Source of the DNA: a virus
Virus record (IMG/VR): IMGVR_UViG_3300050821_004815
Coordinates: 1 to 50,228 of that record
Strand: one strand, 5' to 3'
DNA: 50,228 nucleotides
Shown: positions 564 to 30,352 of the stretch, one piece after another
Position numbering within the stretch: position 1 is the stretch's first letter
How the letters are laid out: each line of letters starts with the position of its first letter
Notes under the pieces: generated by a model
The model's input: only the letters and a program-made list of their open reading frames with translations
Database searches by the model: none
Told to the model about the DNA's origin: nothing
Translations under genes and position numbers: made by a program

Positions 564-657
564 TTCAAGGCAGGGCGAGGCCAAGCAGGGCTATGCGCGG
601 TCGGGCCATGCGCGACGAAGCAGGGCGGGGCTCAGCGAAGCGGGGCAACGCAAGGAT
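564..657 (+). repeat. Pentanucleotide array A1
   Basis: About 17 units of period 5 with GC at fixed phase (RGCNN) fill the gap between the stop at 563 and the TTG at 658. The array ends CGCAA GGATT, with GGATT in phase. In the second module copy the same two genes overlap by four bases (TTGA at 47141-47144) with no array, so this 94-bp block is an insertion or expansion exactly at the junction. Its AGGA end may serve as ribosome-binding site for the next gene. Confidence 0.9.
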
Positions 658-900
658 TTGACACCAGAACAATTACAAAAACGGAACGAAAAAATTAAAG
701 CGGCATGGGATTGCCCTTTGCGGCGATCATTGATGGCGAGGCTTAAAAAGGATCAGGTTTATGCCCGTTATGCCTGTCGGGGCCCGGATGGCCGATATCG
801 AAGATCTGACCCGCATGGTGGTCTCGGTTCAGGCGGAAGCGGCCAGCCACGGCAAACTGACGCTGTGGACGATCTACGACAAGCCGAAGGACCACCCTGA
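658..900 (+). CDS. Small basic protein overlapping the next gene, copy 1
   Basis: 80 aa. The N-terminal 50 residues (IKAAWDCPLRRSLMARLKK, then GPDGRYRRSDP) are conserved in the copy at 47141-47383 although the DNA there is only loosely similar. That argues the reading frame is real. The C-terminal third overlaps the next gene in another frame and is Gly/Pro/Gln rich. The start is TTG, with AAGGA from the array end six bases before. The first 120 bases are clearly AT-richer than the module around them. Function unknown; the basic N-terminus suggests nucleic-acid contact. Confidence 0.55.
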   Translation: MTPEQLQKRNEKIKAAWDCPLRRSLMARLKKDQVYARYACRGPDGRYRRSDPHGGLGSGGSGQPRQTDAVDDLRQAEGPP

Positions 901-1060
901 CGAGATCGTCGCCCGCCGACATGAGGTTCCCGGCGGCCCGACCGAAAACTTGATGGGCGGCGATCTCGGGCTTCTGCGTGAGGTGTTCCGCGGCGCCGGC
1001 CTGGTGTGCGTCGGCCGGCGGGAGGGCGACGACGTCAAGATAGTCGAGACATGGCTTTAA
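761..1060 (+). CDS. Conserved hypothetical protein, copy 1
   Basis: 99 aa and nearly identical to 47244-47543. Core segments are ADIEDLTRMVVSVQAEA, GKLTLWTIYDKPKDHPDE and GGDLGLLREVFRGAGLVCVG, which read as a small alpha/beta domain. The ATG at 761 has AAGGAT about 8 bases upstream; a later in-frame ATG (MADIEDL, 788) is possible. It overlaps the preceding gene by 140 bases in a different frame in both copies. No motif identifies a function. Confidence 0.75.
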   Translation: MPVMPVGARMADIEDLTRMVVSVQAEAASHGKLTLWTIYDKPKDHPDEIVARRHEVPGGPTENLMGGDLGLLREVFRGAGLVCVGRREGDDVKIVETWL

Positions 1061-1073
1061 CGGAGGATCAAAG

Positions 1074-1340
1074 ATGAACGCGATTGTCGAACTGGTTCAG
1101 CCGATCAAAAAGATTCGCAAGCCGCTCGAAGTCAAAAACGCCGAGCTAAGAGCCGAAATCCGCGAGCTTAAGCGCGACCTGAAGGCGGCGCGTCGGCACG
1201 CGACGGACATGCTCGCCTCGATGAAGCTGATGAACCATCGGATGCGATGGCTGATGGAGCATGCGAACTTCGAAACACGCTGCACATGCACCCCGACGCG
1301 CGCCGACTATCTCAGGGCGATTGCGCGTGACCCCGCGTGA
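1074..1340 (+). CDS. Coiled-coil protein with CxC tail, copy 1
   Basis: 88 aa. Residues 20-55 are rich in E/K/R/L heptads (KNAELRAEIRELKRDLKAAR), predicting a coiled coil. The C-terminus carries TRCTCTPTRAD followed by a basic tail. GGAGG lies upstream of the ATG. The copy at 47954-48196 keeps both ends, but the middle (MKLMNHRMRWLMEHANF here) is different. Its 3' end overlaps the GTG of the next gene. Role unknown; probably a small dimeric protein. Confidence 0.75.
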   Translation: MNAIVELVQPIKKIRKPLEVKNAELRAEIRELKRDLKAARRHATDMLASMKLMNHRMRWLMEHANFETRCTCTPTRADYLRAIARDPA

Positions 1341-1845: not shown

Positions 1846-1857
1846 AGCTATTCTCTG

Positions 1858-2072
1858 CACGGCCAAGCGTAGCAAGGCTGGGCAAGGCGTGGCTGGGCCG
1901 GGCGGCGCGAGGCTAGGCGTGGCGTGGCGAAGCTAGGCGTGGCGTGGTCTGGCAATGCCCAGCCGGGCCGGGCGGCGCGAGGCAGCGCTCAGCATGGCAT
2001 GGCGCGGCGGGGCCAAGCAAGGCTTGGCGTCGCGAGGCGTGGTCGGGCGGCGCAGAGCGCAGCGAGGCAAGG
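1858..2072 (+). repeat. Pentanucleotide array A2
   Basis: About 43 units of the 5-bp RGCNN repeat with few phase slips, on the top strand. It contains a longer duplicated block (GGGCCGGGCGGCGCGAGGC recurs about 70 bp apart), which points to slippage or unequal exchange. It ends GGCAA GGATT and then TAATGAGTCAATTTA. The same junction, GGATTTAAT followed by GAGTCAATT, recurs after array A6 at 13559-13581. No gene is believable inside. Confidence 0.9.
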
Positions 2073-2077
2073 ATTTA

Positions 2078-2116
2078 ATGAGTCAATTTAACTCTGCTCG
2101 GCGAAGCAAAGCTTAG
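2078..2116 (+). pseudogene. Vestigial 12-codon ORF (MSQFNSARRSKA)
   Basis: ATG follows AAGGATTTA from array A2, so it has a ribosome-binding site, but it stops after 12 codons where array A3 begins. Its start (MSQFN) and 5' flank resemble the start of the helicase gene at 13571 (MSQLD, same GGATTTAAT...GAGTCAATT). It could be the remnant of a gene whose body was replaced by repeat. It could also simply be copied array flank. Confidence 0.35.
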
Positions 2117-2160
2117 CATGGCGTGGCACGGCCGAACACGGCGTTGCTAGGCAAGGCATG
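2098..2160 (+). repeat. Pentanucleotide array A3
   Basis: About 12 units of the same 5-bp repeat, ending GGCAA GGCAT GGATT directly before the ATG of the ribbon-helix-helix gene (2166). It is separated from A2 by only ~25 bp of AT-rich sequence. Confidence 0.85.
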
Positions 2161-2165
2161 GATTT

Positions 2166-2333
2166 ATGACAACCAAAACTTCACGAATCACCATTAATTT
2201 TAGCGACGCGGCGACGCAGTGGCTCAACCAAGAAGCTACGCGCCGCAATTTGAGCATCAGCGAATTGATCCGCCGCATCGTGGACGAACTGCGCGGTGAT
2301 TTTGTGCTCAAGGACAGCAAGAAAGCGTCTTGA
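2166..2333 (+). CDS. Ribbon-helix-helix (CopG/Arc-like) DNA-binding protein
   Basis: 55 aa: a beta strand (TSRITINFS), helix 1 (AATQWLNQEATRR), then NLSISELIRRIVDELR, the classic RHH layout of strand, helix, turn, helix. Such proteins dimerise and bind operator DNA through the strand. The ATG lies directly after the array end (ATGGATTTATG), so ribosome binding is weak or array-derived. It is AT-rich against its surroundings, suggesting acquisition. It likely regulates nearby early genes or itself; no target is visible. Confidence 0.75.
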   Translation: MTTKTSRITINFSDAATQWLNQEATRRNLSISELIRRIVDELRGDFVLKDSKKAS

Positions 2334-2363
2334 CGTCACTATAGATCGGATTTATGTAGATCA

Positions 2364-2436
2364 AGCACGGCGTGGCCGGGCGTAGCTCGGCACGGTTTGG
2401 CTAGGCGGTGCTGGGCGTGGCTCAGCGAGGCATGGG
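2364..2436 (+). repeat. Pentanucleotide array A4
   Basis: About 14 units (GGCGT GGCCG GGCGT AGCTC GGCAC and so on) between the RHH gene and the gene at 2457. It ends GGCAT GGGTC rather than GGATT. The downstream gene has its own site, GAAGGAAAG, so this array does not supply the ribosome-binding site. Confidence 0.85.
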
Positions 2437-2456
2437 TCTACAGAAGGAAAGATAAA

Positions 2457-3053
2457 GTGGAGATCAAAATAGCTGTTACTGGAATTACGCCACTAATCAT
2501 GAATAAATTTTCTGATGAAGCCGCATTAATCGCTTCTGGCGGCGTCCGAGGTAGTTCAGCTGCGGCTGGACGCAAAACGCCGCTCGAAATTTGTGAAAGT
2601 AAATTGTATGTAGGCCTCGACGGTAAAATAATGGTTCCACAGCCTAATTTATTACGCAGTATTGTAGACGGCGGTCGATTTCATAAGGCAGGAAAAAAAC
2701 AAATCACGACTAAAGAAGAGTCAATGATGTTTTCCTGCCTTGATATCGAAGGCATTAGTATTCCAGTCATCCATCAACAAGGCTGGAAGGTCGACACCCG
2801 TCCTGTGGTCAACCCTTCGACAAAAGGGCGTATCCTTTGTCATCGCCCGATGTTTGATGATTGGAGATTGGAATTCATCGTTCACCTCGACATCACTCTT
2901 CTCGGTCCAGGCATCTTCAGACAAATTGTCGATGACGCTGGCAATCGTATCGGGCTCGGTGATTTTCGACCGGCGCGAAAAGGTCCATACGGTCGTTATC
3001 GCGTCGACCATTGGGAGATCGTTGAGCAAACGCTTGATATAGCGGCGGAATAA
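2457..3053 (+). CDS. Phage 'TPLIMN' family protein (possible nucleic-acid-binding RAMP-like fold)
   Basis: 198 aa from GTG 2457, chosen for GAAGGAAAG 7 bases upstream; a longer frame would run into array A4. The N-terminus KIAVTGITPLIMNKF and the C-terminal GLGDFRPARKGPYGRY are marks of a widespread phage protein family that usually sits beside replication or recombination genes. From memory its fold has been likened to Cas7/RAMP ferredoxin-like proteins, but I cannot verify that here. The gene is AT-richer than the genome core and is flanked by arrays A4 and A5, so it looks acquired. Confidence 0.6.
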   Translation: MEIKIAVTGITPLIMNKFSDEAALIASGGVRGSSAAAGRKTPLEICESKLYVGLDGKIMVPQPNLLRSIVDGGRFHKAGKKQITTKEESMMFSCLDIEGISIPVIHQQGWKVDTRPVVNPSTKGRILCHRPMFDDWRLEFIVHLDITLLGPGIFRQIVDDAGNRIGLGDFRPARKGPYGRYRVDHWEIVEQTLDIAAE

Positions 3054-3060
3054 TTCAACT

Positions 3061-3368
3061 TAGCTGGGCAAAGCCTGGCGAAGCACGGCGACGCGAGGCC
3101 CGGCGGCGCGTGGCGGGGCAAGGTACGGCCCGGCATGGCGGCGCGAAGCCTCGGCGTGGCTCTGCCTGGCTCGGCAACGCATCGCGCGGCCGGGCAAGGC
3201 TTGGCGTGGCATAGCATGAGATGGCGAAGCACGGCGTGGCAACGCGCGGCATGGCGCAGCAAGGCGAGGGCGGGGCAGGGCGCGGCAGAGCGGAACTTGG
3301 CGATGCTGTGCCTGGCTTTGCTAGGCGTGGCCAGGCGTGGCCAGGCACGGCTGGGCAAGGCAAGGATT
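3061..3368 (+). repeat. Pentanucleotide array A5 (longest)
   Basis: About 60 units over ~305 bp with the GC dinucleotide every 5 bases and only a few phase slips. It includes GGCGTGGCCA repeated in tandem near 3325-3345. It ends GGCTG GGCAA GGCAA GGATT in phase. ORFs through it translate to low-complexity Ala/Pro/Arg or Gly/Ala/Arg 5-residue repeats and are not genes. A hairpin follows at 3378-3410. Confidence 0.92.
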
Positions 3369-3377
3369 TATATTAAA

Positions 3378-3424
3378 GGGCCCCCTGCAACGCCAAGCAG
3401 CAGGAGGCCCAATGGTCTGTTTTA
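3378..3424 (+). terminator. Hairpin after array A5, possible terminator
   Basis: Arms 3378-3388 and 3400-3410 pair at 10 of 11 positions (GGGCCCCCTGC with GCAGGAGGCCC) around an 11-base loop. A weak T-rich stretch (TGTTTTA) follows. It would end transcription from the 2166-3053 genes before the helicase gene. The remaining ~100 bases to 3528 contain a TTGACA at 3488 without a good -10. Confidence 0.5.
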
Positions 3425-3527
3425 GCCCAGGTGCGTAGGCCAACATTACATGTAGTGGAGTTATCCAACGTTGTCCACATGAGCGGTTTGACAGGACGCT
3501 GAATCGGGCAGAAATCTCGACCCACAG

Positions 3528-6280: not shown

Positions 6281-6289
6281 GAGCCCGCC

Positions 6290-6613: not shown

Positions 6614-7725
6614 TGGCTAATCCCTGGGACGCGCCGCCGGGTTTTACCGTTGACCCGACTACCGGACAGATCGTCCCGGTCCAACAGCCGTCGCAAGCCT
6701 TCCCTGGCGGCCCGCCGCCCGCTGCTCCGCAACCACAGGCCGCCGCTCCGCAGCCGACTCCAGCCCCGACACCAGGGGGTCCCGCGCCGGTTCCAGGCGT
6801 AACGCTGAACGGCGTTGGCCTCGACGCCAGCCCGAATGCCTTCACCGCGGCTTTTGGCGGCGCCCCACCGACTTCGAGCAACATGTTCCGCGGCGGCGGC
6901 TATGGCGGCGGCAAAAGTTCGATAACCGCCAATAAGCCGGTTAGCCCCGCGATTATGAAGCAAGTCAACAATCCGTTTGACTTCACCAAAGTACCAGGCT
7001 TGGGCTACGCCCCCGGCGGGGCGAACAGCAACGTCAATAGTCCGATTGCTCCTCCCTCGCCGCAAACGACAGCTCAAGCTCCACCTGGGGCGCCGTTGCC
7101 CCCACCTCGGCCGCCAGGGCTAGGCCAAGGCCCGCAAGCCGCCGCGCCGCCGGCAGCTCCCCAAGGTCAGCCTCCCTATGGCAATCCGTGGGATCCGCAG
7201 GGCGTCGGTTACGCCAGGTCGTGGGATCCGCAGGGCGTCGCCGCAGCCGCAGCTGCGCGGATGGGCGGGGGAGCCCCGCAGGGCGCGCTTGCCAATCCCG
7301 CGCTTGGTCAACAACCAAATTCGCCGTTCACCATGGTCTTACGACCTAATGCAGACGCCGCCGGGGGCGGTCGAGGTGGCGGCGGAACGCCTCTCGGCAC
7401 CGCGCTCGATCTTTCCGGCTATCGGCCGCCTCCTCCTGCCCCGCCGTCTTATAATCTCGGCTACAGCGGCGGGGCCCGCGGCGGCGGTGGCGGCGCTGCC
7501 GCTCCTCCGCCCCATTATCGAGCGCAAGCGCCAAATGATCCTGGCGGTCAATTTTGGAGCTTCTCTGGACCCGGAGTCGGGCTTCCGGCGGCCAAGGGAC
7601 CCGGGTTCTGGGCTGTCAAAGGACCAGGAGTCGGATTCCCGGCGGATAAGGGGCCTGGTTTCTGGGCTATCCATGGACCCGGAGTCGGGTTTCCATCGCC
7701 CGGCCCGGTCTTCGGGGGAAGGTAA
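6613..7725 (+). CDS. Pro/Gly/Ala-rich repeat protein
   Basis: 370 aa, mostly disordered PPAAPQPQAAAP-type sequence. Two NPWDPQGVGYA-like units occur near residue 190. A C-terminal set of about four repeats alternates GPGVGFPA and KGPGFWA (residues ~315-370). Such repeats resemble structural or surface proteins rather than enzymes. It is coupled to the upstream gene by TGATG and abuts the Ig-like gene downstream. Virion decoration is conceivable, though it lies outside the late operon. Confidence 0.6.
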   Translation: MANPWDAPPGFTVDPTTGQIVPVQQPSQAFPGGPPPAAPQPQAAAPQPTPAPTPGGPAPVPGVTLNGVGLDASPNAFTAAFGGAPPTSSNMFRGGGYGGGKSSITANKPVSPAIMKQVNNPFDFTKVPGLGYAPGGANSNVNSPIAPPSPQTTAQAPPGAPLPPPRPPGLGQGPQAAAPPAAPQGQPPYGNPWDPQGVGYARSWDPQGVAAAAAARMGGGAPQGALANPALGQQPNSPFTMVLRPNADAAGGGRGGGGTPLGTALDLSGYRPPPPAPPSYNLGYSGGARGGGGGAAAPPPHYRAQAPNDPGGQFWSFSGPGVGLPAAKGPGFWAVKGPGVGFPADKGPGFWAIHGPGVGFPSPGPVFGGR

Positions 7726-8711: not shown

Positions 8712-8712
8712 G

Positions 8713-9885: not shown

Positions 9886-9890
9886 CGTCG

Positions 9891-13479: not shown

Positions 13480-13480
13480 G

Positions 13481-13560
13481 CTTGGCGAGGCCCGGCGTGG
13501 CCAAGCATGGCGCGGCGCGGTCTAGCGAGGCTTGGCGCTGCAATGCGCTGCAATGCGAGG
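13481..13560 (+). repeat. Pentanucleotide array A6
   Basis: Sixteen units in perfect 5-base phase, ending TGCAA TGCGA GGATT in phase. The last part has a 10-bp tandem (CTGCAATGCG twice). It is followed by TAATTACGTGAGTCAATTA, sharing the A2 3' junction. It separates two genes that are otherwise closely packed. Confidence 0.92.
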
Positions 13561-13570
13561 ATTTAATTAC

Positions 13571-14974
13571 GTGAGTCAATTAGACCCAGTTCAACTTAGC
13601 GCACTCGACTTCTCTCGCGATAAGCGCGGCGTCGGCTGGTTCATGGAGCAGGGGCTCGGCAAGACCCTGTGCGCGCTGGCTGAGTTCTCCTGGTACGAGA
13701 AGCTGGGCGAAGCCGACCGGATGGTCGTGGTGTGCCCGAACACCTTCAAAAAAGGGTGGTCGGACGAGATCGAAAAGCACGGCTTCTCGTTCGCCGAGCA
13801 CATCTTCCAATCAAGCAAAAAAGAGAAGGCCGGGATCTTCGTCAACGGCGTTCATAACCGTCCACCCGTTTTCATTCTCAATTACGAAGCGCTACGAATG
13901 CCGGCGGTGCTCAAGGCGATGACCACGTGGGCCTCGCGCGGCAAGACCTATTTCGCCATTGACGAGTCGATCCAGATCAAGAGCCATAGGAGTCAACAAA
14001 CCAAAGCGGCCCAGCGCCTCGCCGCGGTGTGCAAATGGGTGCGCTTGCTGAGCGGGCGCCCGCAAACCCAAGGTCCGCACGATTTGTGGGGGCAATTGCG
14101 CGCCATCGGGCTGTTCCCCGACACCAGCTTCCTCGCCTTCAGGAATACCTTCTGTGAAATGGGCGGTTACATGATGAAGGAGGTGGTCGGTGTGCGCCAA
14201 CCCGAAATGCTCGCTAGGATCATGGAACCGGTGGTCTTCCAGGCTAAAAAGAAAGACTGGCTACCGGATCTGCCGCGCAAGGACGCGACCATTCGCGATT
14301 ATGCGATGTCGACCGCGCAACTCGCTCAATACAACCAGATGGAGCAGCAGTTCCTGCTCTATCTAGAACACAACGTCGTCACGGTGGACGTCGCTATAGC
14401 TAAATACGAGAAGCTCGCCCAGATCCAGACGGGCTTCATATACGACGAGGCGGGTGATGTTCATGAGCTCGTAAAGCCTCTCGAAAACCCCCGGCTCAAG
14501 CTCTTGCATCAGCTTCTGGACGAGGAGGTCGAGGGCAAGGTCTGCGTCGTCTACCGTCATCGTCCCATCCTTAACATGCTGGTCAAAGCTTTGGCCGAAT
14601 ACGACCCGGCCTGGATCATGGGGCGGATGAAGCCCGAGGACGTCGAGGAGCAGAAGCGGCGATTTAACGACGACCCAAGCTGCCGGATCATCCTGTTGCA
14701 GGCCGAAGCCTCGAAATACGGGCATACTTTGTTGGCTGGCCCAGCGGAAGAAGACAGGTGCCGCACCATGATCTTCTTCGAGAATTCTTATAGCGCCGAC
14801 ACGCGAGACCAGATCGAGGATCGTATCCACCGCCGCGGCCAGACCGGCGAATACGTCTCGTATATCGACCTCTCGGGCTCGGACCTCGACCGCCGGATCG
14901 TCAAAGCCCTGCAACGAAAGGATGCGCTATATCGTTCTGTCTTTAAAAACCTTAGAGTCGCCGAACCAGCTTGA
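13571..14974 (+). CDS. SNF2-family helicase/ATPase
   Basis: 467 aa from GTG 13571, with AGGA at the array end upstream; the longer frame starting in the array is rejected. Motif I is MEQGLGKT (residues ~25-32), motif II AIDESIQIK (D-E-S in place of DEAH), motif III LLSGRPQTQ. Motif VI is QIEDRIHRRGQTG near the C-terminus. This is a compact phage SWI2/SNF2 protein that translocates on dsDNA, probably in replication or recombination with the VRR-NUC-like nuclease. The first ~12 codons are AT-rich next to the array. Confidence 0.88.
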   Translation: MSQLDPVQLSALDFSRDKRGVGWFMEQGLGKTLCALAEFSWYEKLGEADRMVVVCPNTFKKGWSDEIEKHGFSFAEHIFQSSKKEKAGIFVNGVHNRPPVFILNYEALRMPAVLKAMTTWASRGKTYFAIDESIQIKSHRSQQTKAAQRLAAVCKWVRLLSGRPQTQGPHDLWGQLRAIGLFPDTSFLAFRNTFCEMGGYMMKEVVGVRQPEMLARIMEPVVFQAKKKDWLPDLPRKDATIRDYAMSTAQLAQYNQMEQQFLLYLEHNVVTVDVAIAKYEKLAQIQTGFIYDEAGDVHELVKPLENPRLKLLHQLLDEEVEGKVCVVYRHRPILNMLVKALAEYDPAWIMGRMKPEDVEEQKRRFNDDPSCRIILLQAEASKYGHTLLAGPAEEDRCRTMIFFENSYSADTRDQIEDRIHRRGQTGEYVSYIDLSGSDLDRRIVKALQRKDALYRSVFKNLRVAEPA

Positions 14975-16055: not shown

Positions 16056-17498
16056 ATTCTTGATCGCATTGCCGACGTTGTAACCGCCGGCCGTCTCCGG
16101 AATCTGAGGACCAGTCTGCGCGCCCGTGGGTTGTTGACCGGTCAGTTGAGGGTAAGCCTGCTGAATGTTCGCCATCCCTCGGCGAGCATTGTAGGACTTA
16201 ATCAGCTTCTTGCCGCCCATGTAGCCCGCCAGTTCACCGGCCATCGCCCCGGGAATGCCAAAAAGGTGTTCCCCGGCAAAGCTTAACCCTGTCCCGAGCA
16301 GATGGGGGATCATCCAACTAACACCGTGATCGCTCGCGCCCGCGCCGGATAAGCCCGCCATCGCTTGATAATCCGGCGTTCCAGGTGTGTAATATTTTTC
16401 GGCTTCCGTGAACGGCCCTTGGCCGACGCTGCCGCCCGTCTCTTTCAACTGACGCTGCAATTCCCCTAGATACTGTGATGCCTGCCATTGCTTGTTGGCG
16501 TTCTGAGCGTCTTTCAGCATGCTGTAAGCTTGGCCGACCGGGTGATCGCTGGTCGGCTGCGCGGTCGCCAATACCCCGTCTTCTCCGGTCAACGCATCCC
16601 TGACCTTCGCCGCCAAAACCTGTTCCGCATTGTTGGTAGGAGAAGCCGCATCCTGAATGCTGCGGGCATATTCATCGACAGCGCCGGCCGACACCGGGCC
16701 GGTTCGCTGCATTTGATTAACGTGGTCCTGCATTTTATTCATGAAACCCGTAGAGACGTCTCCCTTTTGAACATCCGTTAGATCGTTGATGGAGCTGACG
16801 TAAGCGTCGGAAAGATCCTTTGGCGCGAATGTCGGCGCAGTAGAGGCGTGCAAATCCGCATACTTCGCGATCTTGTTCGCTTCGGTCGCCGCATTCGCCG
16901 CGGCCGGATCGACAGAGCCCGGCTTACCCAAGACCTTGGTCAGCCCCTTGTTGACCAGGGGCGCCGCGGCCCCTGCCGCCCCGCCCAAGGCCGCCCCGCC
17001 CAGCGCAGCCCCAGCGGTGCCCGCAAGCGTCGGATCGTCGCTGCCGGCGACGTGGCTGACCCCGCCGACCGTCGCTCCCTCGGCCGCCGTGCCGGCGATC
17101 TTGGATAGAGTCGAACCTGCTCCGAGCGCCGCCGCGCCCGCCTCCGCGGCGTCAGTCACCGGATCGAGGAGATTGACCAGTCCGAGCCCATAGCCGGCCG
17201 CCTCAGTCGGATAACGGATGTACCAGGGCAGGCTCGCCGCCGCGGCTGAGCTCTGCGCCGCGGTCTCGGAAGGCTTCTTTCCCGTCGCCGCCGCGCGCAG
17301 GAGATCGCCGACGCCCCAATCGGCCGAGCTTTCGAAGGTTCGCGCCACCGCGCTCAGCGGCGACTTGGAATAATCGTTGTCCGAGCTCGCGGAAGGCCAG
17401 CCGAATTTCGCCTGCAGCGCCGAGGTCATGGTCGAAGTTGGCGTGCCGTCAGGGAACTGCGCCGTCCCGCCGTCAGGCGTGTTGACGGTGATGGTCAT
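16032..17498 (-). CDS. Putative ejected internal virion protein
   Basis: 488 aa. The N-terminus ITVNTPDGGTAQFPDGTPTS is like the opening of phage ejection proteins. Gly/Ala-rich amphipathic or membrane-active stretches follow (AGTAGAALGGAALGGAAGAA at ~165-185 and LLGTGLSFAGEHLFGIPGA at ~405). It is the last gene of the late operon, next to two other low-complexity proteins and a lytic transglycosylase, as with podoviral injectosome proteins. The start overlaps the upstream gene's stop by 4 bases. Confidence 0.6.
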   Translation of the reverse strand: MTITVNTPDGGTAQFPDGTPTSTMTSALQAKFGWPSASSDNDYSKSPLSAVARTFESSADWGVGDLLRAAATGKKPSETAAQSSAAAASLPWYIRYPTEAAGYGLGLVNLLDPVTDAAEAGAAALGAGSTLSKIAGTAAEGATVGGVSHVAGSDDPTLAGTAGAALGGAALGGAAGAAAPLVNKGLTKVLGKPGSVDPAAANAATEANKIAKYADLHASTAPTFAPKDLSDAYVSSINDLTDVQKGDVSTGFMNKMQDHVNQMQRTGPVSAGAVDEYARSIQDAASPTNNAEQVLAAKVRDALTGEDGVLATAQPTSDHPVGQAYSMLKDAQNANKQWQASQYLGELQRQLKETGGSVGQGPFTEAEKYYTPGTPDYQAMAGLSGAGASDHGVSWMIPHLLGTGLSFAGEHLFGIPGAMAGELAGYMGGKKLIKSYNARRGMANIQQAYPQLTGQQPTGAQTGPQIPETAGGYNVGNAIKNLMLGSAY

Positions 17499-18874
17499 TC
17501 AAGCTGACCCGTCTTCGGATTGTAGGTGTAAGTTTTACCGCCTCCAGGGGCGTTCGCGTTCGCGGTCGCCGACTTCGGCGGATTGCTCGCCCACTGGCCA
17601 CCCTTGCCGGCATAGAGATCGCCGCCCGGCAAATAAGCCGAGTTCACCAACGGCTTTGGGTTGTTGGGGTCGCTCGTGTCCCACTTCATGCTATCGGGAA
17701 TTTCATCTATCCGGCCGGCCGCGCCGAGGGTGTTGACGTAGCTCTTGTTCAGTTGATTCTGAAACTGGCCGAACTGACTCATGTAGCCTTCCGGCGACTG
17801 AGTGAAGTTGGTCAGCGGGCTCAAGCCCTCGCGTAAGTTCTTCACCTCGGTCCCGGTGCGCCTCGACCCGGTCGATTGGAACGCCTCGCCGTAGACCTGG
17901 TTGTTGAGGGTTTTCATCTTCATCAGCGCATCTTGCTCGGGCTGGGTCAGGCCAGCCGAAGCAAGCAGCGACATCATGACACCCGGAGCAGTGTGCTCGT
18001 CCGACGACATCAGCTTTATGGCCGCGGCCTTCTTGATCGAGCTGGACAGGATATTCTGCATCACCGGCGTCGTGCCATCGGTGTCGACCGCGTTTTTGAT
18101 CTGGTCCGCGGTGGTCCGCATCTGGTCGATCTGAGTCAGCATGTCGGGCGCTTTTTGCTGTGCTTCGAGCAGATCTTTCTGCTTCTGCTCTGCGCCCTGC
18201 GTCCCGACTTGGATATTCGCCTCACCCTGCTTCTGCTTAAGCGCGATCTGCGCATCGATCTGCTTATTCATCAGCCCCTGCAGCTGGTCGGTCGGCAGGG
18301 CGTTAAGGATATTCGGATCCATCCCGTTCGGACCGCCAGTGAGGGAAGCGATCATCGCCGGCCGCGCGGCGTTGAGCCGCTGCATGTTCTGCAGCGCGAT
18401 CAGATTGGTCAGTTGCGCCCCAGGATCGGCGCCCTGGCGCTGCGAACCCATGATCGCATTCGCCATCTGAGGGGTCGAGAAAGCCGCCGCCATCATGTTG
18501 AGACCGTGGTCGATCTCGTTGGCCGAGCGGTTGCGCTGCTCCATCTGCAGATAAAGCTGGGCGAGGTCGGGCGGCGACTGAGTGGCGGCCGTAGGAGGCA
18601 ATCCCTGCTGTCCGGGCGGGGGCGCCGGCGGCGAAGGCCCGCCAGCGGGCAACGGCGGACCTCCTACAGGCCGCATAACCCCGCCACCCATCGGAGGGCC
18701 GCCTTGAGCGGGAGGAGGCATGGCGCCTGGGGGCAGCTTCCCGCCTGGCGGTGTGTTCTGCAATTGCGGCGGCGCATTCGGGTTGGGATTGGGCGCCGGT
18801 TGTGGGTTCATCGCCCCGGCAAGTTGGCTGTAGGGGTTGCCGTATAAAAGATTCAAGATTTCCGCGCCGATCAT
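17495..18874 (-). CDS. Putative internal virion protein, Pro-rich N-terminus
   Basis: 459 aa with AGGAGGAG before the ATG on the reverse strand. Residues 20-110 are Pro/Gly rich. The rest is helical with Gln-rich coils (LMNKQIDAQIALKQKQGEAN, QKQKDLLEAQQKAPDMLTQI). It sits in the ejection-protein cluster. No enzymatic motif. Array A7 lies just upstream of its start. Confidence 0.6.
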   Translation of the reverse strand: MIGAEILNLLYGNPYSQLAGAMNPQPAPNPNPNAPPQLQNTPPGGKLPPGAMPPPAQGGPPMGGGVMRPVGGPPLPAGGPSPPAPPPGQQGLPPTAATQSPPDLAQLYLQMEQRNRSANEIDHGLNMMAAAFSTPQMANAIMGSQRQGADPGAQLTNLIALQNMQRLNAARPAMIASLTGGPNGMDPNILNALPTDQLQGLMNKQIDAQIALKQKQGEANIQVGTQGAEQKQKDLLEAQQKAPDMLTQIDQMRTTADQIKNAVDTDGTTPVMQNILSSSIKKAAAIKLMSSDEHTAPGVMMSLLASAGLTQPEQDALMKMKTLNNQVYGEAFQSTGSRRTGTEVKNLREGLSPLTNFTQSPEGYMSQFGQFQNQLNKSYVNTLGAAGRIDEIPDSMKWDTSDPNNPKPLVNSAYLPGGDLYAGKGGQWASNPPKSATANANAPGGGKTYTYNPKTGQLE

Positions 18875-18890: not shown

Positions 18891-19007
18891 CGCGCGGCAC
18901 GGCTGTGCTTGGCGTCGCGGAGCTTTGCCCGGCTAGGCATGGCAGGGCTTTGCAGAGCAATCCTCGGCTGGGCCCGGCATCGCAAGACATAGCGCGGCAA
19001 GGCAAGG
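18891..19007 (+). repeat. Pentanucleotide array A7
   Basis: About 23 units, somewhat more degenerate, with the G-rich strand on top although both flanking genes read on the minus strand. It ends GGCAA GGCAA GGATG, abutting a hairpin at 19010-19030. Here the GGAT end faces the 3' end of a gene, so it cannot be a ribosome-binding site. Confidence 0.85.
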
Positions 19008-19009
19008 AT

Positions 19010-19030
19010 GGGGGTCACGTTGTGGCCCCC
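19010..19030 (-). terminator. Stop-codon-spanning hairpin at the end of the 19015-19686 gene
   Basis: GGGGGTCAC and GTGGCCCCC pair over 9 bp (one G-U) with a 3-base loop. The minus-strand TGA stop lies in the stem. No T-run. It directly joins array A7. Confidence 0.45.
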
Positions 19031-19686
19031 TTCTGACTTTGTAACTGATTAAGCGTGTTGAAAAACGGCTGGTTGGAATAACCGCCGGGGATCGAGGTTC
19101 CGCCGCCGGGATGCTGTGACAGGAAAGCCTGCAGGACCGAGGGCTGCGATTGCGGCCCGGTCGGGGTCGTCCCGGGCAGCATCTGCGCCCCGGGCGTGGC
19201 GACGTGGCCCGGGTTGGCGAGCGCGGTGAGATAGGCCTGGCGCATATCGATGGGGTTGGTCGGCGCGGCCGGCGCGGCAGCGGCTTGCTGCGGGTGTCCC
19301 AATATCCCTTGTTGCGGAACCATGGCGTACCCGTAAGCCGACTGACCAGCGGTCGGGCCGCCCGAGCCCATGGCGTTTTGACCGCCGGCCGCGCCGCCGG
19401 TGCCCTGGCCTTCGTAGATCCGCTGCAATTGCTGCGGGGGCGCGGAATTGAGCGTGGTGCCTGGCGCCGTGGGTGCGGGATTGGCGGTGCTCCAAGCGTC
19501 GTGCGCCTTCTGCGCATCGAGAAACGACTGGATCGGATTGCCCGAAGCGTCGGTCGGCGCGCCCATGTAGCCGGCCATCGGGATCTGACCGGTGAATTCG
19601 AGATAAGGGTTGGGGTTGGTCATCCCCTGCGCGCCCATCAGGTTGTAGGCGTCGGCAAGAGGATCGAGACCGCCAATGCTGGACAT
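19015..19686 (-). CDS. Late hypothetical protein, Ala/Gly/Gln/Pro-rich
   Basis: 223 aa. It opens SSIGGLDPLADAYNLMGAQG and is otherwise low complexity. A motif near residue 145 (DMRQAYLTALANPGHVATPG) appears ordered. It shares the phrase PAPTPGTTLN with the C-terminus of the neighbouring transglycosylase-like protein, so the two may be related or share an assembly tag. Likely an internal virion protein. Confidence 0.55.
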   Translation of the reverse strand: MSSIGGLDPLADAYNLMGAQGMTNPNPYLEFTGQIPMAGYMGAPTDASGNPIQSFLDAQKAHDAWSTANPAPTAPGTTLNSAPPQQLQRIYEGQGTGGAAGGQNAMGSGGPTAGQSAYGYAMVPQQGILGHPQQAAAAPAAPTNPIDMRQAYLTALANPGHVATPGAQMLPGTTPTGPQSQPSVLQAFLSQHPGGGTSIPGGYSNQPFFNTLNQLQSQKGATT

Positions 19687-19691: not shown

Positions 19692-20579
19692 TTATCCGTA
19701 AAGGCCTGTGGAATTCAGCGTAGTGCCCGGGGTCGGCGCCGGGTTGGCCATCGGGATGATCTGGCCGCCCATCATCGTCTGGGTCGAGCTCGGGCCGGGC
19801 GCCCCTTTCAGGCCGCCCTGGCCGCGGAGCGCGGCCGCCAGCTGCGCGCCCTGCATGGCGAGCTGCTGCTGGCGCGCGTTGCCGCCCGCGGCCGCGGCCT
19901 GCTGGGTTTGCAAATCCAATGGCGCGGGTTCGCTACCCCCGCCGCCTCCACCGCCGGCCACCGACTCCAGATTGTCCATGGTCGACTTGGTGCCGGTCCC
20001 GCCGGTCGGCATGCTGAGCGCGGCTATCGCTGTGCCGACATTGGCGGGTTGAGCCGGTGCAGCGGCCGGCGTTGCGGCGACCGCCGTCCCGCCAGCAGGA
20101 CCGCCCATCTTCGCCGTGGCGTTGGCGACGTACTTGGCGACGCTCTCGTTGACATCGCCGACGTTGCGCTTCCACGGCGTCGGCGAGCCTGGTGGGGAGA
20201 CGTTGCCAGGGCCGGAAAAATAGGCGACCGCGACGCGTGCTGGGTCGTTCGGCCAGCGGCTCGCATAATCAGCGATGATCCGGTTGTGGACCGCCAGATT
20301 GTCAGCCGGGTTGTCGATGCTCTCGCCTGGGCGCGCGTATTGTTTGAACGTCGCCGGCATGATCTGCCCGGGCCCGCGCGCTCCTTGCGGACTGACCACG
20401 TTTCGGCCGCCGCTCTCATTGGAGATGATCCCTTTGGAAATCTGCGCCGGGGTGATGGTGACGCCAGGCGGGATCTGGGGCCCATAGTTTCCAGGCGCCG
20501 AAGGCAGCGGCGAGGGGGCATAGACCGGCGGCGGCTGAGCTCCTCCAAGCGGCGACGGCGCGTAGGGGTTGTCAGCCAC
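19692..20579 (-). CDS. Virion-associated lytic transglycosylase
   Basis: 295 aa from GTG 20579. A Pro-rich N-terminus (1-40) is followed by an SLT domain: ISKGIISNESGGRN with the catalytic Glu at 55, then GARGPGQIMPATFKQYA and RVAVAYFSGPGN. After residue ~170 it is Ala/Gly/Gln rich. It cleaves peptidoglycan during DNA entry, as T7 gp16-type proteins do. It lies in the ejection cluster and overlaps the upstream gene by 8 bases. Confidence 0.8.
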   Translation of the reverse strand: MADNPYAPSPLGGAQPPPVYAPSPLPSAPGNYGPQIPPGVTITPAQISKGIISNESGGRNVVSPQGARGPGQIMPATFKQYARPGESIDNPADNLAVHNRIIADYASRWPNDPARVAVAYFSGPGNVSPPGSPTPWKRNVGDVNESVAKYVANATAKMGGPAGGTAVAATPAAAPAQPANVGTAIAALSMPTGGTGTKSTMDNLESVAGGGGGGGSEPAPLDLQTQQAAAAGGNARQQQLAMQGAQLAAALRGQGGLKGAPGPSSTQTMMGGQIIPMANPAPTPGTTLNSTGLYG

Positions 20580-21951
20580 CGAGCGCCCCTAAAATCGGAG
20601 CGCCGGGAGCGCGCAGTTTGCTTTGTAAAATGCCCTTCGAAGGCGGGGTGGCGTCGGCCGACAGGGCTCCTCCGGGCTGGGGGCCTTGTTTGAGGATTCC
20701 GATTGCCTTCGCCACCCCTTGCGAGGATGGGGGAGTAGCCCCCGCGCCCAGCGCATTCAGCATGTCCATATGCACTGCCATGTGCCCCTTCGAGGTCACC
20801 TGGCGCACGGCGTGCGGCGCGATCTTCTTCACGTCCTCGGCCATCGGGCCGACGATCTTCGGGTAGTGCTTCGGGTCGCCCTTGTAGCGGTAGGCGTACA
20901 TGTCGATGCCGGTCGGGTGCTTGCCGATCTTGACGATGTCGGTCTTGAGGCGGCGATCCGAGAGGCCGAGCATCGATGTGAGACCGGCCATCGCGCTGGT
21001 GCCGCCGGCGCCCGAGGAGAACAGCCCGCCGAGCGTCTGCATGCCGCCGAGCGCCGCCGCCATCGGGTTCGACTGGGTCTGGGTGGTCTGCGAGGCCGAG
21101 GTGCCCGAGGTCGCGGTGTCGTACGGCGTCATGCCTAAAGACGATTCCATGATGCCGAGCTGTTGCTGCGGATACTGGAAGGCCTGTTGGAACTTGGCCA
21201 TCTGGGCGTTGACGTCGTTCTGCGCCTGTTGCTGCTCGAAGCCGCCAGCCGAGGTCAACATCCCGTAATTGGCGATGTTGTTTTGCATCTGCTGCGTGCC
21301 GAGCGTGCCGAGACCGGAAGCGGCCTGGTTGACCAGCCCCTCCTGACTAAGTCCCGCCGCTTGGTTAAGCTGTTGGGCCTGTAAATTGCGGCTAATGTCG
21401 CCGGTCGCTGCGGCTTGCGCCTGGCCGAAGTTGGCTTGGTTGAGCTGGCCTGCCATCTGGGCCATGCCTAACGCGCCTTGAGCCTGTGTGACCCCTTGTT
21501 GAATCGCTTGGCGTGAGCCGCCGAACGCGCCCGCCGATGCCGCGGCGTTCTGTTGCTGGTTCTGTGACAACCCCAGGTTTTGTTGCATGATCGGCAAAGT
21601 TGCATTGATCACGCTGGACGTGAATGGGTTCATGTACGGGCTAAGATTAGTATTAGCAATCTGTGCCGGATTAACTTGCTGCGGCGTCTGGCTCAAGTTG
21701 TTAAGGTACCCAGCCTGAGAAGCGTTCTGCGCGTCCTGGCCGACGTTCCCCGAATTCGCCGCTAAATTCCAGGCTTGTTGGCTCTGTGGAGCAACATCCG
21801 CCACCATCTGACCTTGATATTGCTGGAGGGGCTGCGAGGCGACTTGCTGTGCCAAACCATAATTCTGCTGGCCAGCGTTCTGCACCCATTGCGGAATTTC
21901 GTTGGTGCTCTCGGAACTACCTTGTTGAGTTGTTGTACTGCTCCCTCCCAT
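20572..21951 (-). CDS. Gln/Ala-rich virion protein with S74 intramolecular chaperone domain
   Basis: 459 aa. Residues 1-320 are Gln/Asn/Ala/Ser-rich helical sequence with repeated LNQAxxxSQ-like phrases. At about 330, LSDRRLKTDIVKIG begins a peptidase-S74-like domain (DMYAYRYKGDP, VGPMAEDVKKIAP). S74 domains usually end tail fibres and self-cleave after trimer folding. Here ~65 residues follow it, and the gene sits among ejection proteins, so it may assemble a trimeric neck or internal structure. Confidence 0.65.
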   Translation of the reverse strand: MGGSSTTTQQGSSESTNEIPQWVQNAGQQNYGLAQQVASQPLQQYQGQMVADVAPQSQQAWNLAANSGNVGQDAQNASQAGYLNNLSQTPQQVNPAQIANTNLSPYMNPFTSSVINATLPIMQQNLGLSQNQQQNAAASAGAFGGSRQAIQQGVTQAQGALGMAQMAGQLNQANFGQAQAAATGDISRNLQAQQLNQAAGLSQEGLVNQAASGLGTLGTQQMQNNIANYGMLTSAGGFEQQQAQNDVNAQMAKFQQAFQYPQQQLGIMESSLGMTPYDTATSGTSASQTTQTQSNPMAAALGGMQTLGGLFSSGAGGTSAMAGLTSMLGLSDRRLKTDIVKIGKHPTGIDMYAYRYKGDPKHYPKIVGPMAEDVKKIAPHAVRQVTSKGHMAVHMDMLNALGAGATPPSSQGVAKAIGILKQGPQPGGALSADATPPSKGILQSKLRAPGAPILGALGG

Positions 21952-21974
21952 GTGTTAAACTCCTCTTACAGCGC

Positions 21975-22054
21975 GAGGCTCAGCACGGCACGGCACGGCA
22001 CGGCCAAGCCAGGCGGCGCTCGGCTCGGCGAAGCTCGGCGATGCAAGGCATGGC
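21975..22054 (+). repeat. Pentanucleotide array A8
   Basis: About 16 units, including GGCAC four times in a row, top-strand G-rich between two minus-strand genes. It ends GGCAT GGCAA GGG and merges into a hairpin at 22055-22079. Confidence 0.88.
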
Positions 22055-22079
22055 AAGGGAACCATCCTAGAGTTCCTTT
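22055..22079 (-). terminator. Hairpin at the 3' end of the 22067-22426 gene
   Basis: AAGGGAAC and GTTCCTTT pair over 8 bp (one G-U) with a 9-base loop. The minus-strand TAG stop lies in the loop and the outer arm touches array A8. Confidence 0.4.
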
Positions 22080-25597: not shown

Positions 25598-25671
25598 TTT
25601 CTATCTCCCCAAGGTGCCGGCGCTCGCCCCGACTTCTGGCTTAACCCCAAGAGTAATTTGGAGCGGGCGCA

Positions 25672-27219: not shown

Positions 27220-28766
27220 CAGTTCCCGCTTACGGTCTTATGCGTTCCTGTCCCGGCGTCACTGACGCAACCAAGCGTGTTCATGCCGGAACAAATGTTG
27301 CCGGTAACAACATAATAGTCAGAAGCGCCAGAATTGATAAGCACGCCATAACCAGTGCGAGGGGCTGGCGGAGTCCCGGGCACCGCAACCAACCCAATAA
27401 AATCATTGGTAATCGAAAAGTTACTGACGCCGGGAGCAATTGCAATATTATTGGCTGAACCTGACAATCCAGTTCCGTTGTTATTAAGGTAAATCTGACT
27501 ATTAGTGATCGAAGTGGCCACACCGCCGCGCAACCAAAACCCATGCGTCGAATTATTATTGACGAGCATGTTAGAAAACATTGCGCCGCCAAAACCAGGA
27601 TCGATGCGAATGCCGGCTTGACTTAACGAAATCGATGCGTAGCCGTTAACCTCCTGAAGCATACCCCCTGCATGGAGATACATGGTGTTGTAGAAATTGC
27701 GCTCCAACTCAACGTCGTTGAATTCAGCAAAAAGAGGCTGGCTCACTCCAGTATTAAGAGAATCAATCATCGATAATCCCGTACATCCACTCAACAATTC
27801 AGCGTGATCAATACGAAGAGTGGCTGCCCAGCTATCCATCACAACCCACGCCGTCTTGCCGTCCTCTGGTGGGCAGGTCGCCTCGTATTTCCATTGCGCC
27901 GTGCCGTCGTTGATCGCCGTTGACCAGACCGCCGCTGGCGTCGTCACTCCTGGCGGATAACCACTCGGCCCCGTTCCAGTCGAAGCCGTCGTCCCCGCCT
28001 GCGTCACGCCGTAAAGACTGCCATTGATGTACGCCCACTGCCCGACCGTCACCGCAAGGTTCTGCGCCCAGGTGACCCTGTTCAGAGGAGAAACTGAAAC
28101 CGGCCACGGATTATTGGCGACGATGCGCGATATGCGCGCGCAGCACGTGTTGTTGCCGCCAACGTTGTCAGGCTGTCCGCCGAGATAAATCAAAACCGGG
28201 CTAAAGAGATTGCTGCCGTAAACCGTGTCAATTTTGAAATCAGCCGACTTACCGAGCGCAATTCCGCGCCACATGTATTGAATGACGATGTTCTCAATGC
28301 TGCAAAGGAAGCAGCCGTTCTGCACCCGGATGGTGTACCCATTAGTCGGGATGTAATGATTTGGGCCGAACTGGCAGCCGATAATCCGGCTGGACGATCC
28401 GGTCATCGTGAAGAAATCACCGCTATCCGTCGCTTGCAGTAATTGCCCTGCGAAACCGACGCCAGCCGGATAGTTGCCTTCGCATCTCAGAGTGACGACG
28501 CCGCTGATGGCGATAGGGCCACTGCTGGACGTATCGAGAAGGTATGAGCCAGGGGGAACAAGGACGGTGCCGCCGCCTTGCGCCACCGCGTAAGCGATTG
28601 CTGAACGAAACGCTGGCGCGCTATCCTTCGCGGCAGTAGGGTCAGCGCCATAAAAGCGGACATCGTTCGCCGTGATGACGCTCTGAAACGTCGGCGTCGG
28701 ATAGGACTGCGCCTGCGCCGCCACGCTCAACCCCAAAAGCGCGCAGATGAAAGCACTACGAAACAC
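27216..28766 (-). CDS. Pectate-lyase-like beta-helix protein with signal peptide (2)
   Basis: 516 aa from GTG 28766, with GGAGGGG upstream. Signal-like start (FICALLGLSVAAQAQS), then VRFYGADPTAAKDSAPAF and GGGTVLVPPGSYLLDTS, the Pectate_lyase_3 opening. The body has beta-helix Asn/Gly turns and several Cys residues. It parallels the adjacent beta-helix gene, and the pair probably arose by duplication followed by strong divergence. Likely tailspike or secreted depolymerase. Confidence 0.7.
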   Translation of the reverse strand: MFRSAFICALLGLSVAAQAQSYPTPTFQSVITANDVRFYGADPTAAKDSAPAFRSAIAYAVAQGGGTVLVPPGSYLLDTSSSGPIAISGVVTLRCEGNYPAGVGFAGQLLQATDSGDFFTMTGSSSRIIGCQFGPNHYIPTNGYTIRVQNGCFLCSIENIVIQYMWRGIALGKSADFKIDTVYGSNLFSPVLIYLGGQPDNVGGNNTCCARISRIVANNPWPVSVSPLNRVTWAQNLAVTVGQWAYINGSLYGVTQAGTTASTGTGPSGYPPGVTTPAAVWSTAINDGTAQWKYEATCPPEDGKTAWVVMDSWAATLRIDHAELLSGCTGLSMIDSLNTGVSQPLFAEFNDVELERNFYNTMYLHAGGMLQEVNGYASISLSQAGIRIDPGFGGAMFSNMLVNNNSTHGFWLRGGVATSITNSQIYLNNNGTGLSGSANNIAIAPGVSNFSITNDFIGLVAVPGTPPAPRTGYGVLINSGASDYYVVTGNICSGMNTLGCVSDAGTGTHKTVSGNW

Positions 28767-30258
28767 AGATCACCCCTCCGTTATTCCATAGGACCCCAGC
28801 TGTCGGCGGCAGAGTCGTGGGCAAATTGAGCCACCAATTCGGCCCCGGCGGACCTTGCGGACCCGGCGGACCTTGCGGCCCCGGCGGACCCGTGCCAACC
28901 GCCGTTGTGTCATAAATATCGGCGGCCAAGATTTCGCCCGCGCCAGCAGGCCACAAGAGATTAACTCGATTGTTGGGTACATCGACGGTGTAGCCGCCCG
29001 CGCCCGTCCCGTTGTCGGGAACCAGCCTTAAGCCACCCTTGGAGACGATGAGCCCCATGTTGGCGGCCAGAACAATACTGTTGCCGAACATGTCAGCGGC
29101 GGACAGCGAGAACGCCGTCTGACCCGCAGTAGCGATGTAATATAACGACAGGGTTTTTTGCTGGGTGCCGCCGCCGCCAATAATCGTCGTCCAAGAGAGG
29201 ATGCCAGAGCCATTGGTCGTGAGCACCTGACCGGCCGAGCCGCCGTAGATCGCCAAATGAGTCAGATCAGCGAGAGCGAGCAGTCCGTTGACCGCCAGGC
29301 CGCCCTGAATCGTGACTCCGGACCCGTTGAAAACCGTCGCGCCGTCCGCCCGCGCGATGCTCAGCCAGGTGCCGAGAGACACGCCGGTCGTAGAGTAAGC
29401 CTGGAGGCTGAAATTCGCCCCAACGTTGTTCAATCCCTCATTGGTCTGATCGCCCAGATTCATCACCCAGCGCGTGATCCCCGCCGCCTGGGCAAGGATG
29501 GCGCGCGGATTGTTCAGCGGCGCATTGAGCACCAGGCTATTCGGCCCCTGCACGGTCAGAACTTGATTGACCGTCAGCGAGCCCGTGATCGTGCCACCCG
29601 CAATCGGCAAGTAAGGGCCGCCAGTGACCGGCGTCACCCACGACAAATTGCCGTTGCCGTCCGTAGCCGGAACTTGCCCGAGAGAGCCGCCGCCGATGCT
29701 GAGTTGAGCAACCGTCGGAATGGAACAAACCGCATTCCCGGCGAACAAGAGCGCGCCGCCGGTGACCGCGCCGCCCGTCGCCAAATTAGTCTGCCCGGTG
29801 AACGTCCCACCGCTTGCCGGAACGACGAGGTTCCAGGCCCCTAACGCGCGCCCATAAGTCTGATTGTCGGGCGGCTCGGAGATGCCGACTGAATGCGTTT
29901 CAAGATATTCGAGAGTGACCGGCTCCATCGGCTCAACTGGATCGCGCGACAAAAGAACCGGATAGTCGAGCGAGATCGTGGTCGGCGAGATCTGCACCGC
30001 CGTGTCAACGACATTCCCACCGCCATCAAGCTGATTGATCTGGAAGTTCGGCGGGCTCTCGCCGTCGTTGAGCGAAACTTGCCAATAAAGCGAGCTGACC
30101 GTCGCTGGCACACCAGTGATGGTGATGCCGCTGACAATCGCTGGCCCGGCCGGGGCGTTGCAACCCTCGGTGTTATTCCAATCGTTCGACGGCGGCAGCG
30201 GATCGACCACCCATTGCGGGGGTGGTTTCGGCGGCCCTGGAACCCACGCATCGTTCAT
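28756..30258 (-). CDS. Tail fibre with collagen-like segment
   Basis: 500 aa. The N-terminal ~130 residues are beta-rich (VSSLYWQVSLNDGESPP) and likely attach to the tail. The middle has fibre-type phrases (GGTFTGQTNLATGGAVTG, GGTITGSLTVNQVLTVQG). Near the end, GPPGPQ is repeated three times (collagen triple-helix unit), followed by LWNNGGVICVS, a common fibre C-terminus. It forms a trimeric fibre. Array A9 lies just upstream of its start. Confidence 0.78.
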   Translation of the reverse strand: MNDAWVPGPPKPPPQWVVDPLPPSNDWNNTEGCNAPAGPAIVSGITITGVPATVSSLYWQVSLNDGESPPNFQINQLDGGGNVVDTAVQISPTTISLDYPVLLSRDPVEPMEPVTLEYLETHSVGISEPPDNQTYGRALGAWNLVVPASGGTFTGQTNLATGGAVTGGALLFAGNAVCSIPTVAQLSIGGGSLGQVPATDGNGNLSWVTPVTGGPYLPIAGGTITGSLTVNQVLTVQGPNSLVLNAPLNNPRAILAQAAGITRWVMNLGDQTNEGLNNVGANFSLQAYSTTGVSLGTWLSIARADGATVFNGSGVTIQGGLAVNGLLALADLTHLAIYGGSAGQVLTTNGSGILSWTTIIGGGGTQQKTLSLYYIATAGQTAFSLSAADMFGNSIVLAANMGLIVSKGGLRLVPDNGTGAGGYTVDVPNNRVNLLWPAGAGEILAADIYDTTAVGTGPPGPQGPPGPQGPPGPNWWLNLPTTLPPTAGVLWNNGGVICVS

Positions 30259-30278
30259 GGTATAAGCCCCCTACCATG

Positions 30279-30352
30279 GCAAGGCGAGGCCAGGCTGAGC
30301 ATGGCCCAGCGGGGCCCGGCCCGGCGGCGCCAGGCCCGGCAATGCGCGGCAA
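30279..30352 (+). repeat. Pentanucleotide array A9
   Basis: About 15 units (GGCAA GGCGA GGCCA GGCTG AGCAT and so on), G-rich on the top strand between minus-strand genes. It ends GCGCGGCAAAGAGAGGAG, running into a perfect hairpin at 30356-30383. Confidence 0.86.

What the first reader, a model, noticed from the sequence alone, without database searches (positions are those of the whole stretch)
564..30352. Nine intergenic arrays of a degenerate 5-bp repeat (RGCNN)
Arrays at 564-657, 1858-2072, 2098-2160, 2364-2436, 3061-3368, 13481-13560, 18891-19007, 21975-22054 and 30279-30352 all keep GC every 5 bases with varied flanking bases. Lengths run from ~60 to ~305 bp, and none lies inside a gene. 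The unit is too variable for simple slippage yet the phase is kept over dozens of units, which suggests selection on spacing (half a helical turn) or a dedicated spreading process. I know of no named element with this form.
Basis: seen in the sequence. Interest (0 to 1): 0.93.

Follow-up and report, generated by a model that had tools for sequence, protein, structure and literature searches.

The report
Phage RNA guides beside target genes
The strange 5-base repeats are guide RNAs of VIPR, a recently reported virus-against-virus system; in this phage at least four of them are scattered next to the very gene whose rival version they appear to aim at, so weapon and escaped own gene would be inherited together.

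Summary
Nine intergenic arrays keep RGC every 5 bases with variable NN, far beyond chance, all on the + strand. They are not a new repeat class. A ~198-aa protein gene (2457-3053, phrog_4652) lies among them. Its family sits within 1 kb of such arrays in all 80 loci that could be measured, and is absent from 122 loci of array-less relatives. It is homologous to the SUSP1 Vipr protein (PDB 36pp) and is predicted to have a Csm3/Cas7-like RAMP fold. VIPR was reported in an April 2026 preprint (PMC13142463): the NN pairs are an RNA guide read on DNA with one skipped base per pair. Decoding the arrays by that rule gave the new result. Guides at 13480, 18892 and 30279 match the start of the immediately adjacent gene in related phages without VIPR (0 mismatches of 22, 16 and 18 letters). 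Guides at 21973 and 2096 match their own adjacent gene start best in the whole genome. The window's own copies differ at 2-5 letters. The exact 22-letter site of array 13480 occurs in 18 IMG/VR contigs, always at that helicase start. Likely function: silencing rival alleles, each guide linked to an escaped own allele. Expression and activity were not tested here.

The parts
2457..3053 (+). vipr gene (RAMP protein, phrog_4652), GTG start
   Evidence: Family profile hit; PDB 36pp 'SUSP1 Vipr protein' E 2.5e-5 with this single sequence and 4.6e-37 with the family profile; AF2 pLDDT 87.5, best match Csm3 Z 13.2
2166..2333 (+). small ribbon-helix-helix-like protein, candidate accessory (vap) gene; also the neighbour matched by array 2096
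   Evidence: RHH_1 E 0.0022, below Pfam cut-off
570..654 (+). RGCNN array A1 (partly decayed vrRNA?)
   Evidence: no significant target
1857..2071 (+). RGCNN array A2, 43 units, probably more than one vrRNA
2096..2160 (+). RGCNN array A3, 13 units
   Evidence: Guide matches start of adjacent RHH gene (- strand) 15/20, 0 of 60 shuffles reach; only site >=15 in the genome
2365..2437 (+). RGCNN array A4, 14-15 units, with a TTGACG-17-TATGTA promoter-like sequence ending just before it
   Evidence: no target found
3063..3366 (+). RGCNN array A5, three sub-arrays (18, 23, 20 units), followed by a strong hairpin
3367..3425 (+). tail after A5: GGATTTATATTAAA plus GGGCC/GGCCC hairpin then T-rich
   Evidence: RNA fold
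13480..13562 (+). RGCNN array A6, 16-17 units
   Evidence: Guide units 2-12 match helicase start: 0 of 22 mismatches in 16 related loci, own 4; 18/18 exact hits in IMG/VR are this site
13583..13615 (+). own copy of the A6 target site (codons 5-15 of the helicase gene), 4 mismatches
13571..14974 (+). SNF2-type helicase gene, target neighbour of A6
   Evidence: phrog_62 E 6e-91, PF00176
18892..19006 (+). RGCNN array A7, 23 units, antisense to the late genes; hairpin tail 19008-19031
18819..18872 (+). own copy of the A7 target site (start of gene 17495-18874, - strand gene)
   Evidence: 17/20 in best 10 units; 0-1 mismatches in units 6-13 in relatives
21973..22057 (+). RGCNN array A8, 17 units, antisense to the late genes; hairpin tail about 22057-22077
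21910..21939 (-). own copy of the A8 target site (start of ejection-protein gene 20572-21951)
   Evidence: 17/20, best site in the genome
30279..30353 (+). RGCNN array A9, 15 units, antisense to the late genes; 12-bp hairpin tail 30356-30383
30226..30255 (-). own copy of the A9 target site (start of tail gene 28756-30258), 3 mismatches of 18
   Evidence: 0 of 18 in 8 related loci

Best explanation
The arrays are guide RNA genes (vrRNAs) of a VIPR system whose Vipr protein is encoded at 2457-3053. Vipr (RAMP fold) would coat the RNA, one protomer per RGC, and the NN of each unit would read dsDNA with one skipped base per unit (NNxNNx...). In this phage at least four, probably five, guides sit immediately beside the gene whose orthologue in related, VIPR-less phages they match; the matched stretch is the first 10-20 codons, with the skip on the wobble base. 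The window's own copy of each gene differs at several guide letters. So each vrRNA is physically linked to an allele that it pairs with less well: during co-infection VIPR would silence the rival's copy (helicase, ejection protein, tail protein and others), and linkage keeps weapon and escaped allele together through recombination. Shown here: arrays, Vipr homology and predicted fold, array-gene association, code match, adjacency, own-allele mismatches. Inferred: transcription (promoter-like sequences only), RNP formation, repression, benefit in co-infection.
For: Vipr family in 81/119 array-bearing viral loci and 0/122 loci of array-less relatives (Fisher p 5e-35); nearest array within 1 kb in 80/80 measurable loci, median 29 bp. 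Homology to PDB 36pp SUSP1 Vipr; Csm3/Cas7 fold Z 13.2. Skip-1 decoding gives full matches for A6 (22/22) and A9 (18/18) in relatives against at most 17 and 14 for other skips and 19 and 16 for shuffled guides. All 18 exact A6-site hits in IMG/VR are the helicase start. For A3, A6-A9 the top site in the window genome is the adjacent gene start. Own mismatches 4/22, 3/18, 2/16 against 0 in relatives; the closest relative (89% helicase identity) has 1/22. The sister contig L328 carries the same A7 guide and its own site is also mismatched. -10-like elements upstream of arrays exceed AT-matched background, P 0.002. Guides occur in both orientations relative to the mRNA, which argues for DNA rather than mRNA as target. 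Mechanism of VIPR itself: PMC13142463.
Against: No expression or binding data. A1, A2, A4 and A5 have no found target. A8 is matched best by the own gene (17/20) and by no relative perfectly; exact A8 hits elsewhere look like chance. A3 has no relative to compare. Own-allele divergence at the A6 site (4 of 22) is not far above the gene's general divergence, so escape by selection is not proven. The adjacency pattern is weak in other VIPR loci (14/196 against 7/196 for control skips). A2 and A5 are longer than the published 9-16 repeats.
Confidence: 0.87

Rival explanations
1. The vrRNAs are autoregulators: each guide pairs imperfectly with the own adjacent gene start and tunes its transcription (for example delays late genes), with no role against rivals.
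For: For A3 and A6-A9 the best site in the phage's own genome is the adjacent gene start, 15-17 of 20 letters.
Against: Relatives match better than self at A6, A7 and A9. A regulator would be expected to keep its own site perfect; the carrier is the outlier among helicase orthologues of 72% identity or more (4 mismatches against 0-2).
Confidence: 0.2
2. Guides were copied from the ancestral own gene by some local acquisition process and the own gene later drifted; the match to relatives is only shared ancestry, without function against rivals.
For: Guide and gene are always neighbours for the decoded guides; own divergence at the A6 site is not clearly above the gene average.
Against: RGC scaffold and phase are kept, which requires a used RNA; two carriers with the same A7 guide both have mismatched own sites.
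Confidence: 0.15
3. DNA-level element: binding sites or curvature at half-helical spacing, or a spreading minisatellite.
For: Strict 5-base period, same strand genome-wide; insertion at tight gene junctions.
Against: NN carries a readable message only under the skip-1 code; tight association with a Vipr homologue.
Confidence: 0.02

Closest known systems
VIPR systems (SUSP1 and P. fulva type; PMC13142463)
   Same: Vipr RAMP protein, pentanucleotide vrRNAs with conserved triplet and hypervariable NN, skip-1 recognition with skip on the wobble base, phage-encoded, guides in both orientations, structured RNA tail in part of the arrays.
   Different: Scaffold is RGC with A allowed (about 20%) rather than GGY; several guides are scattered 10-28 kb from vipr and antisense to late genes; scattered guides adjoin the gene they match in related phages; two arrays are much longer (43 and about 60 units). 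The preprint's main text describes guides at the VIPR locus aimed at satellites and prophages and does not mention target-adjacent guides; its supplement could not be read.
Free-standing homing endonucleases and marker exclusion in T-even phages (PMC2988022)
   Same: Selfish weapon encoded near the site it attacks in a co-infecting relative, with the carrier's own site resistant.
   Different: RNA-guided binding without a nuclease, expected to silence rather than cut; no protein homology.
Class 1 CRISPR-Cas effectors (Csm3/Cas7)
   Same: RAMP fold, best PDB matches.
   Different: No CRISPR repeats or spacers, no cas1 or other cas genes noted; 5-base RNA unit instead of 6.

Membership tests
VIPR | Vipr protein of RAMP fold with glycine-rich loop | tested here: met
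   36pp match E 2.5e-5 / 4.6e-37; G-x-G-x-x-R-P...G-x-[FY]-G-R loop conserved; Csm3 Z 13.2
VIPR | Tandem 5-base repeats with conserved GGY (or related consensus) and hypervariable NN | tested here: met
   RGC/NN; GC invariant, R = G 66%, A 17%; GGC about 94% in other loci, which were selected with R required
VIPR | vrRNA of 9-16 repeats | tested here: inconclusive
   A3, A4, A6, A8, A9 have 13-17 units; A1 17-19; A7 23; A2 43; A5 18+23+20; RNA ends unknown
VIPR | Structured 3' tail | tested here: inconclusive
   Hairpins after A5, A7, A8, A9; the other + arrays except A4 share only GGATTT
VIPR | NN guide matches DNA with one skipped base | tested here: met
   A6 22/22, A9 18/18, A7 16/16 in relatives; other skips do not (A7 skip 3 reaches 16 only as expected for the homologous L328 array)
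VIPR | vipr-accessory (vap) gene | tested here: inconclusive
   RHH-like gene 2166-2333 between arrays and vipr, below Pfam cut-off
VIPR | vrRNA expression and co-purification with Vipr | not testable with these tools
   needs RNA sequencing and pull-down
CRISPR-Cas | Identical repeats separated by unique spacers | tested here: not met
   No such arrays in repeat scans
Homing endonuclease | Nuclease domain encoded by the element | tested here: not met
   Arrays are non-coding; Vipr of the window has no nuclease match in Pfam

The most novel reading that the evidence does not exclude
Target-adjacent guides: a phage that scatters single RNA-guide genes through its genome, each beside the essential gene whose rival allele it silences and linked to an escaped own allele, giving RNA-guided marker exclusion between co-infecting relatives.
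Probability: 0.6. Interest if true: 0.9.

Novelty: new variant of a known kind. Interest (0 to 1): 0.82.

Why it matters
It is an independent test of the newly reported skip-1 code: guides in an uncultured phage decode to exact gene starts of its relatives. It also suggests a population-genetic role beyond attacking satellites and prophages: guides linked to escaped alleles would drive local replacement of rival alleles, as homing endonucleases do, but without cutting. It makes testable how guide and escape mutation arise together, which is an open question for the origin of RNA-guided immunity. Mycobacteriophages of M. smegmatis carry the same system and offer a laboratory model.

Tried and rejected
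Half-helical DNA spacing, TRAP-like RNA binding, primase pentamers, adenine-mutagenesis (DGR) origin and fold-back insertion were considered; none explains the decoded messages. Literature searches with repeat strings found nothing; the lead came from the PDB profile match. Megablast of window bases 1-25000 to cultured phages gave no match. Host-genome arrays: genome-contig hits are mostly microsatellites; the degenerate ones sit on single MAG contigs, probably phage. Exact-pattern scans for A4, A3 and A2 found no target; three exact A8 hits are in contigs with no detectable homologue of the A8 neighbour gene, two of them identical at the site, taken as chance. A1 hits are low-complexity C-rich matches. 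Adjacent-gene matching in other VIPR loci is marginal; L107 is one possible further case. Pfam and NCBIfam have no family for Vipr. Foldseek matches do not include 36pp; that library ends 2026-04-08 and no conclusion is drawn from the absence.
Full report
Observation. The nine arrays exist at the stated places. GC recurs every five bases with scores of 34-120 bits per segment, against a maximum of 21.6 in 60 simulated windows. The exact six-unit pattern occurs 36 times on the + strand and never on the - strand. The two N positions are nearly free, the base before GC is mostly G and sometimes A, and GC itself is fixed. The arrays are intergenic. The one at 3063-3366 contains two phase shifts.

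The window is a complete IMG/VR virus record of 50228 bases with N4-like structural genes (portal phrog_1216, ejection protein, tail genes) and a primase and SNF2 helicase on the + strand. Close relatives were fetched with the helicase and a structural protein. Of 122 such loci only two, both from one contig (L259/L328), hold an array, at the same site as window 18892. At 30279 relatives have a tight stop-start junction where the window has the array, so the arrays are lineage-specific gains.

The same kind of array is common in viruses. In 34 of 36 whole records checked the arrays lie on one strand only. They also occur in cultured mycobacteriophages such as Saal, where array units are gained, lost and replaced while the flanks stay nearly identical. 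The few degenerate hits in bacterial genomes lie on single contigs of metagenome bins.

The key step was to compare the genes beside the arrays. One protein family of about 190-250 residues recurs. A profile finds it in 81 of 119 array-bearing viral loci, in the window at 2457-3053, and in none of the 122 loci of relatives (Fisher p 5e-35). In all 80 measurable loci an array lies within 1 kb, median 29 bases, and 220 of 225 arrays share its strand. The comparison sets were gathered differently, so the p value is only indicative. The family is phrog_4652, of unknown function there, without a Pfam or NCBIfam model. A profile search of the PDB found 36pp, 'SUSP1 Vipr protein', E 4.6e-37; the window protein alone matches it at 2.5e-5. 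The AlphaFold model (pLDDT 87.5) matches Csm3/Cas7 subunits, best Z 13.2 over 168 residues.

The name led to a preprint of April 2026 (PMC13142463) describing VIPR: a RAMP protein with RNAs of GGY/NN repeats whose NN pairs recognise double-stranded DNA with one skipped base. The present arrays fit that class, with the scaffold RGC.

I then decoded the window arrays. Against 1.5 Mb of relatives, only the one-base skip gave long matches. Array 13480, units 2-12, matches GA.CC.GT.CA.AT.GC.GC.CT.GA.TT.GC, the codons DPVQIAALDFA at the start of the helicase gene that lies directly downstream of the array: 0 mismatches of 22 in 16 related loci, 1 in 13 more, and 4 in the window's own gene. A scan of all IMG/VR contigs for the exact 22-letter pattern returned 18 contigs, every one at codons 5-15 of this helicase. 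Array 30279 matches the start of the adjacent tail gene in relatives (0 of 18 in eight loci, own 3). Array 18892 matches the start of its adjacent gene (0 of 16 in two loci, own 2). Array 21973 matches the start of the adjacent ejection-protein gene (own 17/20; relatives partial) and array 2096 the start of the adjacent RHH-like gene (own 15/20). For these five arrays the adjacent gene start is the best site in the whole 50-kb genome on both strands; the sub-window of each guide was chosen for its local match, so the exact odds are not stated. Unit-order shuffles reach the local score in 0, 0, 0, 0 and 1 of 60 trials. In the sites inspected the skipped base falls on the codon wobble position.

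The window's own copies are mismatched. At the helicase site it reads DPVQLSALDFS; orthologues with 72% or more identity have 0-2 mismatches and the closest (89%) has 1. At the ejection-protein site own serines use AGY where the guide asks TCN. The sister contig L328 holds the same guide as 18892 and its own site is also mismatched, while four loci without the array match 19 of 20 letters. L328 has no array at the helicase and its helicase start is a perfect site for the window's guide. These facts fit a weapon linked to an escaped allele. They do not prove selection for escape: four changes in 22 letters is only about twice what the gene's general divergence predicts.

The three late arrays are antisense to the genes around them. 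Each is preceded by a TGN-TA...T extended -10-like sequence and followed by a hairpin. Over all nine arrays the -10 score exceeds AT-matched background (P 0.002). Independent transcription from the + strand is therefore plausible but not shown.

Conclusion. The arrays are vrRNA genes of a VIPR system. The new element is their placement: scattered guides next to the gene whose rival version they match. It works like intronless homing and marker exclusion in T-even phages (PMC2988022), without membership in that family. Unresolved are the targets of A1, A2, A4 and A5, the role of the long arrays, and whether the arrangement is general; other VIPR loci show only a marginal signal.

Noticed in passing
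window 30340-30395 (- strand 30400-30240): The tail hairpin of A9 (12-bp perfect stem) is made from pre-existing coding sequence at the end of the upstream gene plus a new reverse-complement arm, as if formed by fold-back copying at insertion.
   Followed up: partly
L241 2900-3200 and relatives L242, L365-L369, L372, L373: Cheoctovirus mycobacteriophages (Saal, Philus, Donkeykong, Quico and others) carry an array just upstream of a Vipr homologue (Saal gp51); arrays turn over quickly while flanks stay nearly identical.
   Followed up: partly
L094:1655-2140, L241:3936-4388, G033:20194-20745: A second conserved protein (about 150-180 aa, motif HxxFEWDDxxAAxEYR) lies just downstream of vipr in 9 loci; no Pfam match; possible vap family.
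   Followed up: partly
L069, L103, L041: Vipr genes often lie beside recombination genes: AAA_24 (Sak4-like), ERF and YqaJ exonuclease.
   Followed up: partly
L107:5097-5166: Array whose guide matches 16 of 18 letters of nearby coding sequence (shuffles reach 12): possible second case of a target-adjacent guide.
   Followed up: partly
G028 (L395 1046-1110 and L396 end): A 35.8-kb viral contig has similar arrays in opposite orientation at both ends; terminal inverted repeat or chimeric assembly.
   Followed up: no
window 7567-7688: 54-bp repeat of 2.3 copies, apparently coding.
   Followed up: no
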